Source: Candidatus Obscuribacterales bacterium | GTDB lineage: Bacteria > Cyanobacteriota > Vampirovibrionia > Obscuribacterales > Obscuribacteraceae | DNA length: 64,000 nucleotides | Assembly (NCBI GenBank): GCA_019744775.1 | Contig: JAIETZ010000003.1 | Location: 372,001 to 436,000, forward strand | Direction: 5' to 3' | Shown: positions 2,306 to 39,978 of the stretch, piece by piece | Numbering within the stretch: the stretch's first letter is position 1 | Layout: the number at the start of each line of letters is the position of its first letter | The notes under the pieces: model-generated | Seen by the model: the letters and a program-made list of their open reading frames with translations, nothing else | Told to the model about the DNA's origin: nothing | Database searches by the model: none | Translations under genes and position numbers: made by a program

Positions 2306-4420
2306 TTAGGTGGCAGGAGCCAGGCGCATTAAAACGACTATCTGATCTATGAGCCAAATTCCAGGAAATGGCACAATGAGACCGCCCAAGCCATAAATCA
2401 AAAGATTGCGCGACAGCAAAGCCTCGGCACTCATTGGCCGATACTTGATACCACGTAGGGCAAGAGGAATTAAGGCAACAATGACCAGAGCGTTAAAGAT
2501 AACGGCTGAAAGTATGGCTGACTCAGGAGAGTGCAATCCCATAATGTTCAACTGCCACAAGGGTCCATGCTGTCCAGGTGCTAGTGCGTAAAGTGTGCCG
2601 AACATAGCCGGCAGGATAGCGAAGTATTTGGCTACGTCGTTGGCAATGGAAAATGTTGTTAATGCGCCGCGTGTCATTAAGAGCTGTTTGCCAATTTCTA
2701 CTACCTCGATTAATTTAGTTGGGTTGGAATCAAGATCAATCATGTTGCCGGCTTCTTTGGCTGCTTGAGTGCCGGTGTTCATAGCCACTCCAACATCGGC
2801 TGCTGCTAAGGCTGGAGCGTCGTTAGTACCATCCCCGGTCATTGCTACAAGACGTCCACCTGTCTGTTCTTTTTGAATTAATTGCATTTTTGCCTCAGGC
2901 GTAGCTTCGGCCAAAAAGTCATCAACCCCAGCTTCGCTGGCAATCGCCGCTGCAGTCAACGGGTTGTCACCCGTAATCATTATTGTGCGAATACCCATAG
3001 CTCTTAATTGTAAAAAGCGTTCTTTCATACCGCCTTTTACAACATCTTTTAAATGAACCACACCAAGGACGCCTCTTTTGCTGTCAGCCACCGCCAGCGG
3101 TGTGCCACCGGACTGAGCTATGCTGGTAACAGACTTCTCGACTTCTGCTGTTACCGGAAGATTATTGGCTTTCACAAATTTAAATATGGCTTCTGAGGCC
3201 CCTTTGCGAATTTCATTGTCGTTGATATTTACTCCACTCATACGCGTCTGAGCAGTAAAGGGAATGAATTCCGGTTCCCTTGTGGACAACTCTCTCTCTC
3301 TCAATCCATGTTGTTTTGCCAAAACAACAATAGATCTGCCTTCCGGTGTTTCATCAGAAAGAGAAGATAATTGAGCAGCGTCAGCAAGTTCTTCGATACT
3401 CACACCAGGCGCGGGTACAAATTCGACTGCCTGGCGATTACCCAAAGTAATCGTGCCGGTTTTATCAAGCAAGAGGGTGTCCACATCGCCTGCCGCTTCA
3501 ACTGCTTTGCCGCTCATTGCCAGGACGTTGTGCTGCAAAACTCTATCCATGCCGGCAATACCAATTGCTGAAAGCAGTCCGCCAATTGTAGTTGGAATGA
3601 GGCAAACCAGTAGAGAAATAAGAGAGAAGACATCTGGTGCCTTACCGGCACCCGCCGAGTGCACAGAGTAAATTGAATAAGGTAAAAGGGTCGATACCGC
3701 CAAAAGGAAAACAATGGTCAAGCCGGCGAGCAAAATGTCTAGAGCTATCTCATTAGGGGTCTTTTGCCGGGCAGCACCTTCGACTAGCGATATCATTCGG
3801 TCTAAAAAGGTTTGACCGGGATCTACGGTTATCCGAATACGCAGCCAGTCAGACAGAACCGTTGTGCCGCCTGTAACCGCGCTGCGGTCGCCGCCACTTT
3901 CTCTGATAACCGGCGCTGATTCACCTGTTATGGCGCTCTCGTTGACTGTGGCTACACCTTCGATTACTTCACCATCCGAAGGGATGACTTCACCGGCTTT
4001 TACAAATACTATGTCGTTTTTCTTTAGCTCGGTGGCTGCTACGGATTCAGTCTTACCACCAGCTAATTCACGGAGAGCAATGGCTTCTTTGCGCCCACGT
4101 TTGAGCGTGTCAGCTTGAGCTTTTCCGCGTCCTTCGGCCATAGCTTCAGCAAAATTAGCAAAAAAAACAGTAGCCCAAAGCCAGAGTGTAATTTGTATTT
4201 CAAAGATAAACTCGGAATGGTTTATGCCGGAACATATATTACGCGCAAGCAAAATCATTGTAACGAGACTACCCACAGCGACAACAAGCATGACTGGATT
4301 TTTTGCTAAATGTCTTGGGTGTAGCTTGAGAAAAGCATCTTTGCCGGCTCTTTTTACAATTAGCGGATCAAAGAGTGGTTTGGTCTTTTTCTTAGGTGGG
4401 ATAATGTCTAGATCTTGCAT
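2306..4420 (-). CDS. kdpB: Potassium-transporting P-type ATPase subunit KdpB
   Basis: 704 aa P-type ATPase, the energising subunit of the high-affinity K+ pump. It has the phosphorylation motif DKTGTITLG (phospho-accepting Asp about residue 319), the actuator TGES motif, and the hinge [19 protein letters not shown] followed by the KdpB-specific tail [12 protein letters not shown]. Membrane helices are grouped as in other KdpB proteins: two near the N-terminus, two before the phosphorylation domain, three at the C-terminus. It is 24 bp downstream of kdpA and 9 bp upstream of kdpC. All catalytic residues I looked for are present, so it should be active. Confidence 0.98.
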
Positions 4421-35761: not shown

Positions 35762-36781
35762 TTAGACCAACGCTTCACGCACTTCCGGTTTGCGTAGTTT
35801 CCAGATGACATGATCGGTGAGCATGTGATGCATATTTATAGCTAGAAATACGGAAATGAAAGCTACTGACGCATCGATTCCTAAATTGGTAAGTAACTTG
35901 GGAATACAGAGGTAAATTAACAACGCAATAACGAGAAGTTGTCCGTAGTAATTACCTACCGTCGATATTAAAGACTTGCCGGGCTCTGACGGTGACTTCA
36001 ACTGTTTTGATATGGTGACAACCAAGTACTGACTGCCATGAAAGAACGCCGGTACATAGAGCCAAAGTGCGCCGGCAATGTCTTTGCTGCAAATGAAAAT
36101 GGCTAGGGTAGTCATCGCTAATAGGCAAGCAGGCAATGGCAGCAGTTTCTTCTCAGTTTGAAACTTGTGAATTAAAACGCAGAGAAAAGCAATGATTGAA
36201 ACTACTAGTGCCGCTGTTGAAAGGTCAAAGAAGATACGTGGTAGGAATGGCCAACTAGGCAGGCTTATATTGAGAAAGCTCTCCGGTGCCCAATCACGAA
36301 AAGTCAGTTGTTGCAGAATGGCAAAGCACATTGTCGATTGCATAAGTGCTTTTATGACGAACTTTTGTTTGGAACCAAGGAAGTAGTTGTTTTTCAGACA
36401 ATACAAGAGAAAAAGACCATAGCTTTGCCCCGTGAAGTGCTGTACTGCAAGAAGTAAATATAGTTTTGATAGAAGGGGGATGATATCCCGAATTAACAAA
36501 CAAGTGAGTGCGAGCAATGAGAAGATGACTAATGCTTTGCGCATAAAAGAAGCAGGGCTTTTAGCTGACTTATCCGAATAAATCTGAACTAGTCCGGCTG
36601 CCGTGTGTGTTTCGCTAAGAAATATGCTGCCGATTACGCCAACCATCAGCACAGTGACCGCAGATGGTGCAATTGTTGTGCCATGTGTGAACATCTGAGC
36701 GGCAAAGAGAAGCCACATCAAACCTCCGCAAGCAAAGAGAATATCTAATAGAGGATGGAGAATGTATCTGCTGTTGTTCAT
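35762..36781 (-). CDS. Histidine-rich polytopic membrane protein of unknown function
   Basis: 339 aa with about nine predicted membrane helices. Conserved-looking polar motifs lie at helix ends: SETHTAAG, VQHFTGQSYG, FFHGSQYLVV and NMHHMLTDHVIWKLRKPEVR. From memory an uncharacterised bacterial family shows the same order (H..QxYG, FHGxQYL, HHxxxDxxIWKLRxPEV); I know no name or function for it. The grouped His residues could bind a metal pair as in membrane hydroxylases or desaturases, but this is inference. The ATG overlaps the stop of the preceding paralogue gene (ATGA), so it belongs to the five-gene operon. Confidence 0.7.
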   Translation of the reverse strand: MNNSRYILHPLLDILFACGGLMWLLFAAQMFTHGTTIAPSAVTVLMVGVIGSIFLSETHTAAGLVQIYSDKSAKSPASFMRKALVIFSLLALTCLLIRDIIPLLSKLYLLLAVQHFTGQSYGLFLLYCLKNNYFLGSKQKFVIKALMQSTMCFAILQQLTFRDWAPESFLNISLPSWPFLPRIFFDLSTAALVVSIIAFLCVLIHKFQTEKKLLPLPACLLAMTTLAIFICSKDIAGALWLYVPAFFHGSQYLVVTISKQLKSPSEPGKSLISTVGNYYGQLLVIALLIYLCIPKLLTNLGIDASVAFISVFLAINMHHMLTDHVIWKLRKPEVREALV

Positions 36782-37047
36782 GAGAAGAAGCTCTCATCGC
36801 GAGGGGATGCAACCAACCAATCGAAGAAACCAGGAATGCTTAGTCCAATTACTGTAACAAGTACAGAGACCACAAGGTTGATGATCGCTTTCTTTTTGCT
36901 TTCTCTGTAAATCCTAAAAGTTAGCACTAAGAATAAGATTCCCAACGCTACCCCAACTATTTCGGCACCATGCCCGACCGTCTTCAGTAATGCTTCCAGA
37001 TGGGCAAGATTGTTAACACGTACCATGCCGGCAGGATTCGGTTCCAT
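36778..37047 (-). CDS. Two-helix small membrane protein, paralogue 4 (no signal peptide)
   Basis: 89 aa, AAGGAG 8 nt upstream. It begins MEPNPAGMVRVNNLAHLEALL, then a membrane helix, a basic loop (RIYRESKKKA), a second helix and the tail SPRDESFFS. It is the most diverged of the four tandem paralogues but keeps VRVN.L..LEALL, EIVG, GLS.PG and the RD...FS end. It is coupled by a 4-bp overlap to the polytopic membrane protein gene. Function unknown. Confidence 0.8.
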   Translation of the reverse strand: MEPNPAGMVRVNNLAHLEALLKTVGHGAEIVGVALGILFLVLTFRIYRESKKKAIINLVVSVLVTVIGLSIPGFFDWLVASPRDESFFS

Positions 37048-37065
37048 GTGAATGCTCCTTGAGAG

Positions 37066-37338
37066 TTAAGAAAAGAGATTGGCATCGCGAGCGGTCGCAA
37101 CGAGATAGTTGACTGTGCCCGGTGTGGATAGTCCGCTTGCTATAAAGACGAGGGCTAGCTTAAGGCGAAAGATCGCCAAGGTTTTGTTTTTTGTATAGTG
37201 GCGACAGAATGAAATGATCAGAAGTATGCCGCCTGTGATGCCGATTAGTTCGGCGAAGTTGGCAACGATATTCAACAGGGCTTCTAGATTGGACAGATTC
37301 ATAGTTCTGACGACAACAATGTTTGTGGTGGTATCCAT
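37066..37338 (-). CDS. Two-helix small membrane protein, paralogue 3 (no signal peptide)
   Basis: 90 aa from the ATG at 37338, where AGGA lies about 8 nt upstream; a longer reading runs back into paralogue 2 and is rejected. MDTTTNIVVVRTMNLSNLEALL, helix 1, a basic loop (RHYTKNKT), helix 2 and the tail ARDANLFS. The last part (FIASGLSTPGTVNYLVATA) is very close to paralogues 1 and 2. Without a signal peptide, the N-terminus begins right at the conserved VR motif where the mature forms of paralogues 1 and 2 would also start. Confidence 0.8.
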   Translation of the reverse strand: MDTTTNIVVVRTMNLSNLEALLNIVANFAELIGITGGILLIISFCRHYTKNKTLAIFRLKLALVFIASGLSTPGTVNYLVATARDANLFS

Positions 37339-37354
37339 ATTTTTCCTTCGATAT

Positions 37355-37747
37355 TTACGAAAAGAGGTTCGCATCGCGAGCGGCTGTAAGCAGATAGTCA
37401 ACGGTCGATGGTGAACTGAGGGCGCTAATTGCAAAAAGCGCACCGGTGACTAGTCGTCCCTTTGATAGCTGCTTGTTAGTAACCCAGATTCTGGCTACTG
37501 TCGTGAAAATAGAGGCTGCTGTAATTAATCCCACGATTTCATATCCATTGACGAATATGTTAACGAGAGACACCAGGCAACCTAGACTATTTACTCGAAC
37601 TGTTCCTGCGGTATTAATTCCAGTAACGACTGTAGCGGAATCGGTGGGGCCAATGACGGTAGCCGAATTAGTTGCCAATGCTGGAATGGCGAGAGTCAGC
37701 AACAGCCCGGCAAGTAATGAAAGTCTGAAAACGATTTTTTGTGACAT
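37355..37747 (-). CDS. Two-helix small membrane protein, paralogue 2 (with signal peptide)
   Basis: 130 aa, AGGAGT before the ATG. A signal peptide (MSQKIVFRLSLLAGLLLTLA, cleavage near ALA) is followed by NSATVIG...VVTGINTAGTVRVN, two membrane helices separated by VTNKQLSKGR, and the C-terminus ARDANLFS. It shares GINTAGTVRVN with paralogue 1. The layout of signal, short Thr/Val-rich segment and two helices recalls VirB2/TrbC-type pilins, but I see no sequence match and no secretion ATPase nearby. Confidence 0.85.
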   Translation of the reverse strand: MSQKIVFRLSLLAGLLLTLAIPALATNSATVIGPTDSATVVTGINTAGTVRVNSLGCLVSLVNIFVNGYEIVGLITAASIFTTVARIWVTNKQLSKGRLVTGALFAISALSSPSTVDYLLTAARDANLFS

Positions 37748-37756
37748 GTAATACTC

Positions 37757-38125
37757 CTAACTGAATAGTCCGGCATCACGACAGCCGGCAACAAAGAAGT
37801 TGATACTCCCTGGCGTCAGAAGACCACTTGCGATAAACACAAACGCAGCAAGGATTGTAGATTTGGATACTCGCTTGGTGGCAAAAAAGACTTTGACGGA
37901 CTTGTAGAGCAAAACTATGCCGACTGCAATGAGGACAATCTCGCAGCCATTGGCCAGTATGTTCAACAATGCTTCAAGATTTGCAAGCATGTTGACGCGC
38001 ACAGTGCCCGCTGTGTTTACACCTTGTATAACGGTCGCATCTACATTGTCGGCATGTGCACAAGGCACAGCCAAGCCATATATGCCTGCCAGAGCAGGCA
38101 CAATCGGACTCCCTGTATGTTTCAT
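37757..38125 (-). CDS. Two-helix small membrane protein, paralogue 1 (with signal peptide), first gene of the operon
   Basis: 122 aa, GGGGG about 10 nt before the ATG. A signal-like N-terminus (to about residue 25, CAHA) is followed by DNVDATVIQGVNTAGTVRVN, helix 1 (about residues 58-78), the basic loop FFATKRVSKST, helix 2 and the tail GCRDAGLFS. It is closest to paralogues 2 and 3. It is the promoter-proximal gene of a five-gene leftward operon ending in the polytopic membrane protein. The family was not recognised. Confidence 0.85.
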   Translation of the reverse strand: MKHTGSPIVPALAGIYGLAVPCAHADNVDATVIQGVNTAGTVRVNMLANLEALLNILANGCEIVLIAVGIVLLYKSVKVFFATKRVSKSTILAAFVFIASGLLTPGSINFFVAGCRDAGLFS

Positions 38126-38197: not shown

Positions 38198-38226
38198 ACT
38201 GTAAGCGGGATGCGGCACGAAGTCAA
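38198..38226 (-). promoter_or_regulatory. Sigma-70-type promoter of the paralogue operon
   Basis: On the minus strand TTGACT (38226-38221), a 17-bp spacer, then TACAGT (38203-38198). Transcription would begin near 38191, giving a leader of about 65 nt before paralogue 1. This is the best sigma-70-like pair I found in the window. Confidence 0.65.
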
Positions 38227-38344: not shown

Positions 38345-39460
38345 TTGTCGGAAAAGTATCAGCTAAGACAAAATGATGGAGCTTGCTTTGCGGTTGCAGT
38401 AGGTAGTTCATTCATCGTGGCGACGTTTATGTGCTTGCCTGATGCGATTGCGCTAATTCCTTCGGTGCCGGATTTCATTCACTGGTTCGTGCGGGTGATT
38501 GGCTTGTGGCTTTCGGCAGCAATGCTTTGGACTATGGGTTTGTTCTTTGTACTCAAAGTAGCATTGTTGATTGCCGGACCAATTGTTGTTGACAGCACGG
38601 GTATTCGTCTGTCTCGATTCAGTAAGAAAATTCGTTGGAGTTGGATTGGCGCACTTGGTGTTGATAGTCTCGAGACTATTCGAGAAGTGTTTTTCATGAA
38701 AACGCCAGTTATGCGTCTGATGATTTACATGCCGAAGTATGAAGAGAAAGGTAAGTGGGTCAAAGGTGGTGCGCAAGTTGTTCCGTCTCTTTGGTTTACC
38801 AAAGAGCAATTCGAAGCACTTGTTTCATTCGCATCTAAGAAGGCATTTGGAATTGCTCCTAATGGATTGCCAGTTTTGCTTGGACATTCTCCGTTGCGAG
38901 AAGAAACCAGAGAGATAAACAAGCAGAAGAAGATTTTCAGAACTTTGTATTCAGCAGTTGTGGCAATAGGCATTGTCACTGTGCTGGGCAGAAATGCGAT
39001 AGTCAACTATTCATATAATGCCGGTAATAAAGCCGTGAGAGATGGGCAGTTGGAAGAAGCGATACAAGACTATCGCACTGCTCTGACTTTTAAGCCTGCT
39101 TTTGCGATGGCATGGCATCAGTTAGGAACAATCTACTGGATTCAAAATAAGAAGAAGGACGCAGAAGATGCCTGGAATCATGCGCTTGCGATGAGACCGG
39201 ATCTGGTTGAAGCGAAAGTTGGTTTGTCATATCTGTACAGTCAACGGAATGAGAATGATAAGGCGGAGAAACTTTTAGTCAATGCATTGCGTTTGTCGCC
39301 GACGTATGTGCCGGGACATATTGCATTAGCCGAACTGTATTTTCACAAGAAGGATTATGCCAAGGCGCGGCAATCAGCTGAGCTTGTTTTGCAAATGGAA
39401 GCCAAAAATGGGCAGGCGCTTAAGCTGCTGAGACAGATTGCAAATGAGGCGCACAAATGA
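38345..39460 (+). CDS. Membrane-anchored TPR protein with N-terminal helix pair
   Basis: 371 aa from a TTG start with GAGG about 7 nt upstream; a nearby GTG is out of frame. Two membrane helices (about residues 17-38 and 45-75) are followed by about 110 residues resembling a bacterial PH-like domain (DSTGIRLSRFSKKIRWSWIGALGV), another helix (about residues 196-216) and three or four TPR repeats facing the other side. Function unknown; TPRs suggest a scaffold. It overlaps the next gene by 4 bp and is divergent from the paralogue operon. Confidence 0.75.
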   Translation: MSEKYQLRQNDGACFAVAVGSSFIVATFMCLPDAIALIPSVPDFIHWFVRVIGLWLSAAMLWTMGLFFVLKVALLIAGPIVVDSTGIRLSRFSKKIRWSWIGALGVDSLETIREVFFMKTPVMRLMIYMPKYEEKGKWVKGGAQVVPSLWFTKEQFEALVSFASKKAFGIAPNGLPVLLGHSPLREETREINKQKKIFRTLYSAVVAIGIVTVLGRNAIVNYSYNAGNKAVRDGQLEEAIQDYRTALTFKPAFAMAWHQLGTIYWIQNKKKDAEDAWNHALAMRPDLVEAKVGLSYLYSQRNENDKAEKLLVNALRLSPTYVPGHIALAELYFHKKDYAKARQSAELVLQMEAKNGQALKLLRQIANEAHK

Positions 39461-39978
39461 ATCGAACTATTACCGATATTTTTGCAAGTGTGATAACAGC
39501 GATCATCTACATCGCGATGTCGACATTGGTGATGGCGTGTATATGGACGGCAATTGAGGCAATGCGTCAATTCGGTGTCTACAATCAACAAGCAATGATT
39601 GATCAATTGCGTGCTGTAAAAATTGCAGAAGATGCTATGCGTACTTATGATCCAAGTTCATTGCTTGGACAAATTGAAAGCATGCTCAAGTGGTACAACC
39701 TGACTTTTATTGGTGCTGCTCGTTATGGTTCTGGATTGGGAATTTTCATAGGGGCTTACTTCGCGCTGGTCTCGTTAAGCAGTCGAGTACTGGCCGCTAG
39801 AGTTGCAGCTGCAATAGTTGCCGGTAGCTTGGTTGGCGCACGCTTGTTTTTGATGGTGACAAGCGAACCAAAGATGTTTATAGCTGGCGCATGTATTGGC
39901 GCAGGCTTGTTTGCCGGAGTGACAATTTGGCATAGTCGTCAGGAACACATACCGGATTTGTTGTCGGAATCCAAATAA
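39457..39978 (+). CDS. Small membrane protein, unknown, coupled to the TPR gene
   Basis: 173 aa, ATGA overlap with the preceding gene. There is a helix at about residues 8-34, a polar helical stretch (about 38-80), and three more hydrophobic segments rich in Gly and Ala (about 83-160). No domain is recognised. The tight coupling says it works with the membrane TPR protein. Confidence 0.65.
   Translation: MNRTITDIFASVITAIIYIAMSTLVMACIWTAIEAMRQFGVYNQQAMIDQLRAVKIAEDAMRTYDPSSLLGQIESMLKWYNLTFIGAARYGSGLGIFIGAYFALVSLSSRVLAARVAAAIVAGSLVGARLFLMVTSEPKMFIAGACIGAGLFAGVTIWHSRQEHIPDLLSESK

What the first reader, a model, noticed from the sequence alone, without database searches (positions are those of the whole stretch)
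35762..38125. Five-gene operon of four tandem two-helix paralogues plus a His-rich polytopic membrane protein
Four adjacent genes encode 89-130 aa proteins with the same plan: (signal), (T)VRVNxLxxLEALLN, membrane helix, basic loop, membrane helix with GLxTPG, and a near-invariant C-terminus RDAxLFS. They sit behind one clear promoter and end in a coupled (ATGA) polytopic protein with QHFTGQSYG, FHGSQYL and HHMLTDHVIWK. I recognise no described system with this make-up. Possible readings: a hetero-oligomeric membrane assembly (ring, pilin-like or channel), or substrates modified by the polytopic protein.
Basis: partly seen in the sequence, partly recalled or inferred. Interest (0 to 1): 0.78.

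Follow-up and report, generated by a model that had tools for sequence, protein, structure and literature searches.

The report
Hairpin C-terminal tails with membrane partner
Four small genes in an uncultured non-photosynthetic relative of cyanobacteria encode little more than a two-helix membrane tail which, in related genomes, replaces the known PEP-CTERM surface-sorting tail on large exported proteins; they are made together with a new membrane protein family that looks like an enzyme, which points to an undescribed surface-protein anchoring or sorting device.

Summary
In detail: a minus-strand operon of four paralogous two-helix genes (122, 130, 90 and 89 aa) runs into a 339-aa polytopic gene (PO) through an ATGA overlap, in a Candidatus Obscuribacterales genome. 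No Pfam, NCBIfam or PHROGs family fits. Main finding: the hairpin ('TH') is a C-terminal domain. It ends about 170-aa secreted proteins in tandem arrays (up to 22 loci per genome). In VIT-domain proteins of about 560-1270 aa it sits where homologues from the same lineage, encoded beside an exosortase, carry PEP-CTERM. VIT proteins are published carriers of three other sorting tails (PMC3237569). I therefore read TH as a lineage-specific C-terminal anchoring/sorting domain, p3 and p4 as bare copies of it, and PO as a membrane partner, probably an enzyme, of a subset. A T4SS pilin is unlikely: VirB4 is missing from most genomes with TH. PO is not the general TH sortase, since 11 genomes have TH without PO. 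PO's chemistry is unknown. Inferred, not tested.

The parts
37757..38125 (-). p1, 122 aa: signal peptide, linker DATVIQGVNTAGT, hairpin domain VRVNMLANLEALLN...RDAGLFS
37355..37747 (-). p2, 130 aa: signal peptide, linker, hairpin domain ending RDANLFS; preceded by AGGAG
37066..37338 (-). p3, 90 aa: bare hairpin domain without evident signal peptide (corrected start ATG 37338 with GAAGGA upstream)
36778..37047 (-). p4, 89 aa: bare hairpin domain without evident signal peptide, AAGGAG upstream, stop overlaps PO start (ATGA)
35762..36781 (-). PO, 339 aa polytopic membrane protein with invariant H59, H115, Q119, C128, K130, H248, Q251, Y252, H319, D323 across 45 homologues
38198..38226 (-). possible promoter TTGACT-17-TACAGT upstream of p1 (not above chance expectation)
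38345..39460 (+). divergent 371-aa membrane/TPR protein; homologue lies divergent to the hairpin-PO operon in another genus (L066, 34% identity)
39457..39978 (+). 173-aa membrane protein overlapping the 371-aa gene; conserved in the same position in L066 (36% identity)

Best explanation
The repeated unit is a C-terminal membrane-hairpin domain ('TH'), about 85 residues: motif (T)VRVNxLxxLEALLN, helix 1, basic loop, helix 2 with GLxTPG, and an invariant RDANLFS-type C-terminus. In Candidatus Obscuribacterales it serves as a C-terminal anchoring/sorting tail of exported proteins, working like PEP-CTERM, LPXTG or GlyGly-CTERM but built as a two-helix hairpin. Most likely mechanism: the protein is exported by a signal peptide; the hairpin inserts with its basic loop in the cytoplasm and both ends, including RDANLFS, in the periplasm; the hairpin retains the protein in the membrane and marks it for surface assembly or processing. 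In this operon, p1 and p2 are minimal exported carriers, and p3 and p4 are bare hairpins translated together with PO, with which they probably form a membrane complex. PO, with four invariant histidines plus Cys, Lys, Asp and Gln, is probably a membrane enzyme (metal- or lipid-dependent) acting on or with these hairpins. Shown: family membership, C-terminal position, tail swap with PEP-CTERM, PO-hairpin linkage. Inferred: topology, sorting function, complex formation, enzyme activity.
For: TH is always at the extreme C-terminus: in 54 of 194 relatives searched, up to 22 loci per genome, mostly as the end of proteins of about 170-200 aa that typically start with a signal peptide and a variable Q/G/N-rich stretch. 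It ends VIT-domain proteins (L073, L075, L076, L077, L188, L189, L225, L227, L231). Homologous VIT bodies (mostly 22-30% identity over 550-800 aa, E 1e-20 to 1e-78; shorter matches for L188 and L189) end instead in PEP-CTERM (VPEPE or VPESDTW, helix, basic end) when the gene lies beside an exosortase (L226, L228, L232, L233, L234), or in a third hairpin tail (L224, L229, L235). The neighbours in L228 and L232 score above the exosortase signature cut-off. Published precedent: bacterial VIT/vault proteins carry GlyGly-CTERM, LPXTG or PEP-CTERM with cognate enzymes (PMC3237569). In L228 and in the TPR protein of L066 the modules join right after 'NTAGTV', the point where bare p3 and p4 begin. Basic residues cluster in the loop. 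PO linkage: 22 of 107 PO genes have a hairpin gene within 400 bp on the same strand, against well under 1 expected, with 11 parsimony changes on the PO tree (shuffled mean 20.3). The third tail type also occurs as a small gene overlapping PO by one base (L162). All 42 PO genomes carry TH.
Against: No processing enzyme for canonical TH was found, and joint presence of signal and enzyme is the hallmark of known sorting systems (PMC3237569). PO is missing from 11 genomes with TH. TH lacks the classical final basic cluster and has a second helix. No cleavage, export or localisation data exist. The hairpin could be a plain anchor without sorting. The PO clade that lost TH linkage lies in lipid-type loci, so PO may have an unrelated main function.
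Confidence: 0.5

Rival explanations
1. Small accessory subunits: p1-p4 are hairpin subunits packed around PO in one membrane enzyme or transporter (like the small subunits of respiratory complexes). The likeness to exported-protein tails is ancestry only; the PO complex is the functional unit here.
For: Bare hairpins of about 90-113 aa lie directly beside PO in several deep PO clades (window p4, L157/L158, L169, L172/L175, L176; a 78-aa one downstream in L066), often overlapping PO.
Against: p1 and p2 have signal peptides and linkers like surface proteins; about 80% of PO genes have no hairpin neighbour.
Confidence: 0.25
2. Pilin-like subunits: the hairpins polymerise like VirB2/TrbC pilins (same topology: signal peptide, two helices, cytoplasmic basic loop), as a surface fibre in arrays, with VIT-TH proteins as tips.
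For: Topology and size class match VirB2 (from general knowledge); high copy number with variable exported N-termini and nearly identical cores.
Against: TrbC and T4SS_pilin models do not find TH; VirB4 is absent from own genome and 33 of 35 family/order members searched; TH and PEP-CTERM are interchangeable on VIT proteins.
Confidence: 0.1
3. PO is the sorting or modifying enzyme for the hairpin tails (an alternative to exosortase), with p1-p4 as its dedicated substrates.
For: PO is polytopic with invariant His, Cys, Lys and Asp; linked to two different hairpin tail types, TH and the NNFGGLGG type; PO genomes are a subset of TH genomes.
Against: Eleven TH genomes lack PO, several over 90% complete, so PO cannot be the general TH enzyme; no profile similarity to an exosortase; VIT-TH genes seen here do not lie beside PO.
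Confidence: 0.15

Closest known systems
PEP-CTERM / exosortase (TIGR02595, PF09721), including exosortase-linked VIT proteins (TIGR04477, TIGR04286, TIGR02921)
   Same: Extreme C-terminal homology domain on otherwise different exported proteins, many per genome; occupies the same C-terminal position on homologous VIT proteins; motif, helix and basic cluster are present in its first half.
   Different: TH has a second helix and an invariant RDANLFS end (inferred to lie outside the membrane) instead of a basic tail; no PEP motif; occurs in genomes without exosortase, including this one; not adjacent to exosortase.
GlyGly-CTERM/rhombosortase, LPXTG/sortase, MYXO-CTERM/myxosortase
   Same: Lineage-specific C-terminal tails; VIT-family proteins carry the first two (PMC3237569).
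   Different: Tripartite single-helix architecture ending in basic residues; each has a known or proposed cognate enzyme, TH has none.
VirB2/TrbC and T4SS_pilin (PF04956, PF18895)
   Same: Signal peptide plus two-helix hairpin with basic loop.
   Different: No profile match and no VirB4 in most genomes with TH.
Brp/Blh beta-carotene dioxygenase (PF15461)
   Same: Polytopic with conserved membrane histidines; weak rhodopsin-like rows for PO (Z about 6, rmsd 5-6 A).
   Different: hhalign with a Blh protein finds only a 26-column local match, probability 7%; no Pfam hit.

Membership tests
C-terminal sorting signal (PEP-CTERM/LPXTG-like class, as defined in PMC3237569) | Homology domain at the extreme C-terminus of multiple otherwise different proteins in one genome | tested here: met
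   Secreted proteins of about 170 aa, VIT proteins and bare hairpins all end in the domain
C-terminal sorting signal (PEP-CTERM/LPXTG-like class, as defined in PMC3237569) | Tripartite architecture: motif, single TM helix, terminal basic cluster | tested here: not met
   Motif, helix and basic cluster are followed by a second helix and RDANLFS
C-terminal sorting signal (PEP-CTERM/LPXTG-like class, as defined in PMC3237569) | Cognate processing enzyme jointly present and absent with the signal | tested here: not met
   For the two candidates examined: exosortase is in only 15 of 53 genomes searched and not in this one; PO is missing from 11 TH genomes. Other enzymes were not screened
C-terminal sorting signal (PEP-CTERM/LPXTG-like class, as defined in PMC3237569) | Interchangeable with known sorting signals on homologous proteins | tested here: met
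   VIT proteins with TH versus PEP-CTERM tails
C-terminal sorting signal (PEP-CTERM/LPXTG-like class, as defined in PMC3237569) | Cleavage or surface localisation | not testable with these tools
   needs cells or heterologous expression
VirB2/TrbC T4SS pilin | Match to TrbC (PF04956) or T4SS_pilin (PF18895) profile | tested here: not met
   no match at the hairpin genes
VirB2/TrbC T4SS pilin | VirB4 ATPase in the same genome | tested here: not met
   PF03135 in 2 of 53 genomes, not in this one
Exosortase (for PO) | Homology to EpsH (PF09721) | tested here: not met
   PF09721 finds nothing in this genome; hhalign probability 0.5% against an exosortase of a related genus
Brp/Blh dioxygenase (for PO) | Homology to PF15461 | tested here: inconclusive
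   no Pfam hit; hhalign with a single Blh sequence probability 7%; only one Blh sequence was available for the comparison

The most novel reading that the evidence does not exclude
A previously undescribed surface-protein sorting system of Candidatus Obscuribacterales: hairpin C-terminal signals (TH and at least one other hairpin tail type) replace PEP-CTERM, and PO is a new class of polytopic, metal- or lipid-dependent enzyme that processes or lipid-modifies a subset of them.
Probability: 0.15. Interest if true: 0.85.

Novelty: new variant of a known kind. Interest (0 to 1): 0.6.

Why it matters
If TH is a sorting tail, it would be a type built as a membrane hairpin rather than one helix, apparently universal in a whole bacterial order with no experimental biology known to me. 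It would mark hundreds of surface proteins there and make its processing enzyme findable by phylogenetic profiling, the way exosortase was found. It would also extend the published pattern that VIT-domain proteins carry dedicated sorting tails (LPXTG, PEP-CTERM, GlyGly-CTERM) to new tail types. PO would be a new polytopic membrane protein family with conserved, enzyme-like residues.

Tried and rejected
Pfam, NCBIfam and PHROGs on all five proteins: nothing above the curated cut-offs; canonical TH, Pfam and NCBIfam: nothing. Profile search of PDB sequences with PO: no match; with TH: only spurious rows. PO model (pLDDT 89.6) against PDB: no Foldseek match below E 0.1; VIA-align best Z 6.6, rows mostly GPCRs and microbial rhodopsins, within the range expected of unrelated helical bundles. 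TH model (pLDDT 69, hairpin at 46-118): generic helical hairpins only. Brp/Blh idea for PO: not supported. Exosortase idea for PO: not supported. T4SS pilin idea: rejected. Phage or plasmid origin: no TH relatives in IMG/VR, no PO in plasmids. PO outside Obscuribacterales: none in a spread of 386 genomes of the phylum except this one and a stop-containing E 0.004 fragment; TH likewise only in this genome of that spread. The single-pattern genome-contig scan returned mostly Obscuribacterales or Melainabacteria MAGs plus a few labelled otherwise, which may be misassigned. No paper in the library holds the TH motifs as sequence.

Full report
What is there. The five ORFs lie on the minus strand at 35762-38125. 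In order of transcription: p1 (122 aa), p2 (130 aa), p3, p4 (89 aa) and the polytopic protein PO (339 aa). p3 has an ATG at 37338 preceded by GAAGGA and is best read as 90 aa rather than the 125-aa GTG form; p4 has AAGGAG upstream, and PO begins in an ATGA overlap with the stop of p4. p1 and p2 begin with signal-peptide-like stretches and a short linker; p3 and p4 are the bare two-helix unit. The paralogues match each other at 35-48% identity (E 1e-9 to 1e-17), and the distance from the LEALLN-type motif to the Arg of the final RD motif is 61 residues in all four. The promoter-like site is well placed but not above chance.

Where it is. The window is part of a 4.1-Mb genome of the Candidatus Obscuribacterales type. 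A fifth hairpin gene lies elsewhere in this genome (C3:634647), in the canonical secreted form beside a ThiF-like gene.

The hairpin family. A single-sequence search found relatives in 54 of 194 relatives: every genome listed from the same family and the same order, plus one weak hit in the class, with up to 22 loci per genome, often in tandem. The canonical form is a secreted protein of about 170 aa: signal peptide, variable Q/G/N-rich stretch, linker LQGATNGTIGPQGxDATxIxGVNTAGT, then VRVNNLANLEALLN, helix, loop, helix, GLATPGxxNWLVASARDANLFS at the very C-terminus. A profile of the family finds nothing in 385 other genomes spread over the phylum.

The tail swap. The hairpin is also the C-terminus of proteins of about 560-1270 aa with a VIT domain. 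Homologous VIT proteins of the same lineage end in three ways: in the hairpin (nine examples); in a PEP-CTERM (VPEPE or VPESDTW, one helix, basic end) when the gene lies beside an exosortase (L226, L228, L232, L233, L234); or in another hairpin tail ending NNFGGLGGGL (L224, L229, L235). The bodies match across tail types, mostly 22-30% identity over 550-800 residues, with shorter matches for the 560- and 587-aa proteins L188 and L189. In L228 and L232 the neighbours score above the exosortase signature cut-off. In L228 the linker LQGATNGTIGPQSGDATVVAGINTAGTV is followed directly by PEP-CTERM, so the linker and the hairpin are separate modules joined right after NTAGTV, the point where the bare p3 and p4 begin. 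The same kind of argument was used for GlyGly-CTERM, and the published example is the VIT/vault family itself, which carries GlyGly-CTERM, LPXTG or PEP-CTERM in different bacteria (PMC3237569). This is the main reason to read the hairpin as a C-terminal anchoring or sorting domain. Most basic residues downstream of the motif sit in the loop, which by the positive-inside rule puts the loop in the cytoplasm and both ends in the periplasm (inference).

The polytopic protein. PO relatives occur in 42 of 194 relatives, all of them TH-positive, with up to 11 loci per genome. In 45 homologues H59, H115, Q119, C128, K130, H248, Q251, Y252, H319 and D323 are invariant. AlphaFold gives a confident helical model (pLDDT 89.6) without a convincing relative in the PDB. 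A resemblance to Brp/Blh that I suspected from the histidine spacing is not supported, and it is not an exosortase by profile comparison.

Linkage. Of 107 distinct PO genes, 22 have a hairpin gene (21 TH, one NNFGGLGG type) on the same strand within 400 bp, often overlapping. With about six TH genes in some five thousand, well under one would be expected (binomial tails; not corrected for relatedness). On the PO tree the linked genes occupy several, mostly early-branching positions, with 11 parsimony changes against a shuffled mean of 20.3. Bare hairpins directly before PO recur in distant clades (L157/L158, L169, L172/L175, L176). The divergent 371-aa and 173-aa neighbours of this operon are conserved in another genus, G010 (L066). 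A large PO clade, with tandem PO genes, has no hairpin neighbour and lies in a locus with GH3/OlsH-like, OleD-like and HpnA-like SDR and Mpo1-like genes, which hints at lipid chemistry.

What it is not. No TrbC or T4SS_pilin match falls on the hairpin genes, and the VirB4 ATPase is missing from this genome and from 33 of the 35 family and order members searched, so a conjugation-type pilin is unlikely. Exosortase is missing from this genome and found in 15 of 53 relatives searched, so the hairpin does not need it. PO is missing from 11 genomes with hairpins, so PO is not the general hairpin-processing enzyme.

Verdict. Best reading: a lineage-specific, hairpin-type C-terminal anchoring/sorting domain, here as two minimal exported carriers and two bare hairpins made together with a membrane partner protein that is probably an enzyme. 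The domain, its C-terminal position, the tail swap and the PO linkage are shown by sequence. Topology, sorting, complex formation and catalysis are inferred. By the published definition it fails two criteria of classical sorting signals (single-helix tripartite form; a known cognate enzyme), so I say that it works like one and do not file it as a member.

Noticed in passing
L066:3829-6669 (same gene as L097:126-2966): A 946-aa TPR protein carries the linker 'QSTNGTIGPQGGDTTIIQGVNTAGTV' inside its sequence, without the hairpin, near a hairpin-PO operon: the linker behaves as a separate module.
   Followed up: partly
L065:8664-13716, L072, L074, L078: Canonical hairpin genes or arrays share neighbours across genera: a ThiF/MoeB-like adenylyltransferase ending in a CPDCG-type motif, a CxxCxKCC protein (YkgJ-like by eye) and an AnmK-like kinase (by eye); whether the ThiF protein modifies the hairpin proteins is untested.
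   Followed up: partly
L106:749-8303, L112, L098, L109: Tandem PO genes of the crown clade follow GH3 (OlsH-like), OleD-like and HpnA-like SDR and Mpo1-like genes, an apparent lipid-modification locus of unknown product.
   Followed up: partly
L224:2006-4867, L229:2362-5226, L235:1871-4936, L162:2549-2959: Another hairpin C-terminal tail ending NNFGGLGG, on VIT proteins and on a small gene overlapping PO by one base.
   Followed up: partly
L079:335-6102 and L238:576-12596: Tandem arrays of secreted hairpin proteins with nearly identical C-terminal cores and more diverse N-termini, suggesting gene conversion or recent duplication.
   Followed up: no
L036 (G001), just downstream of PO, 2471-3153 on the PO strand: In the closest relative a MerC-like membrane protein (by eye) and a 56-aa His-rich peptide follow PO directly; they are absent from the window.
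   Followed up: no
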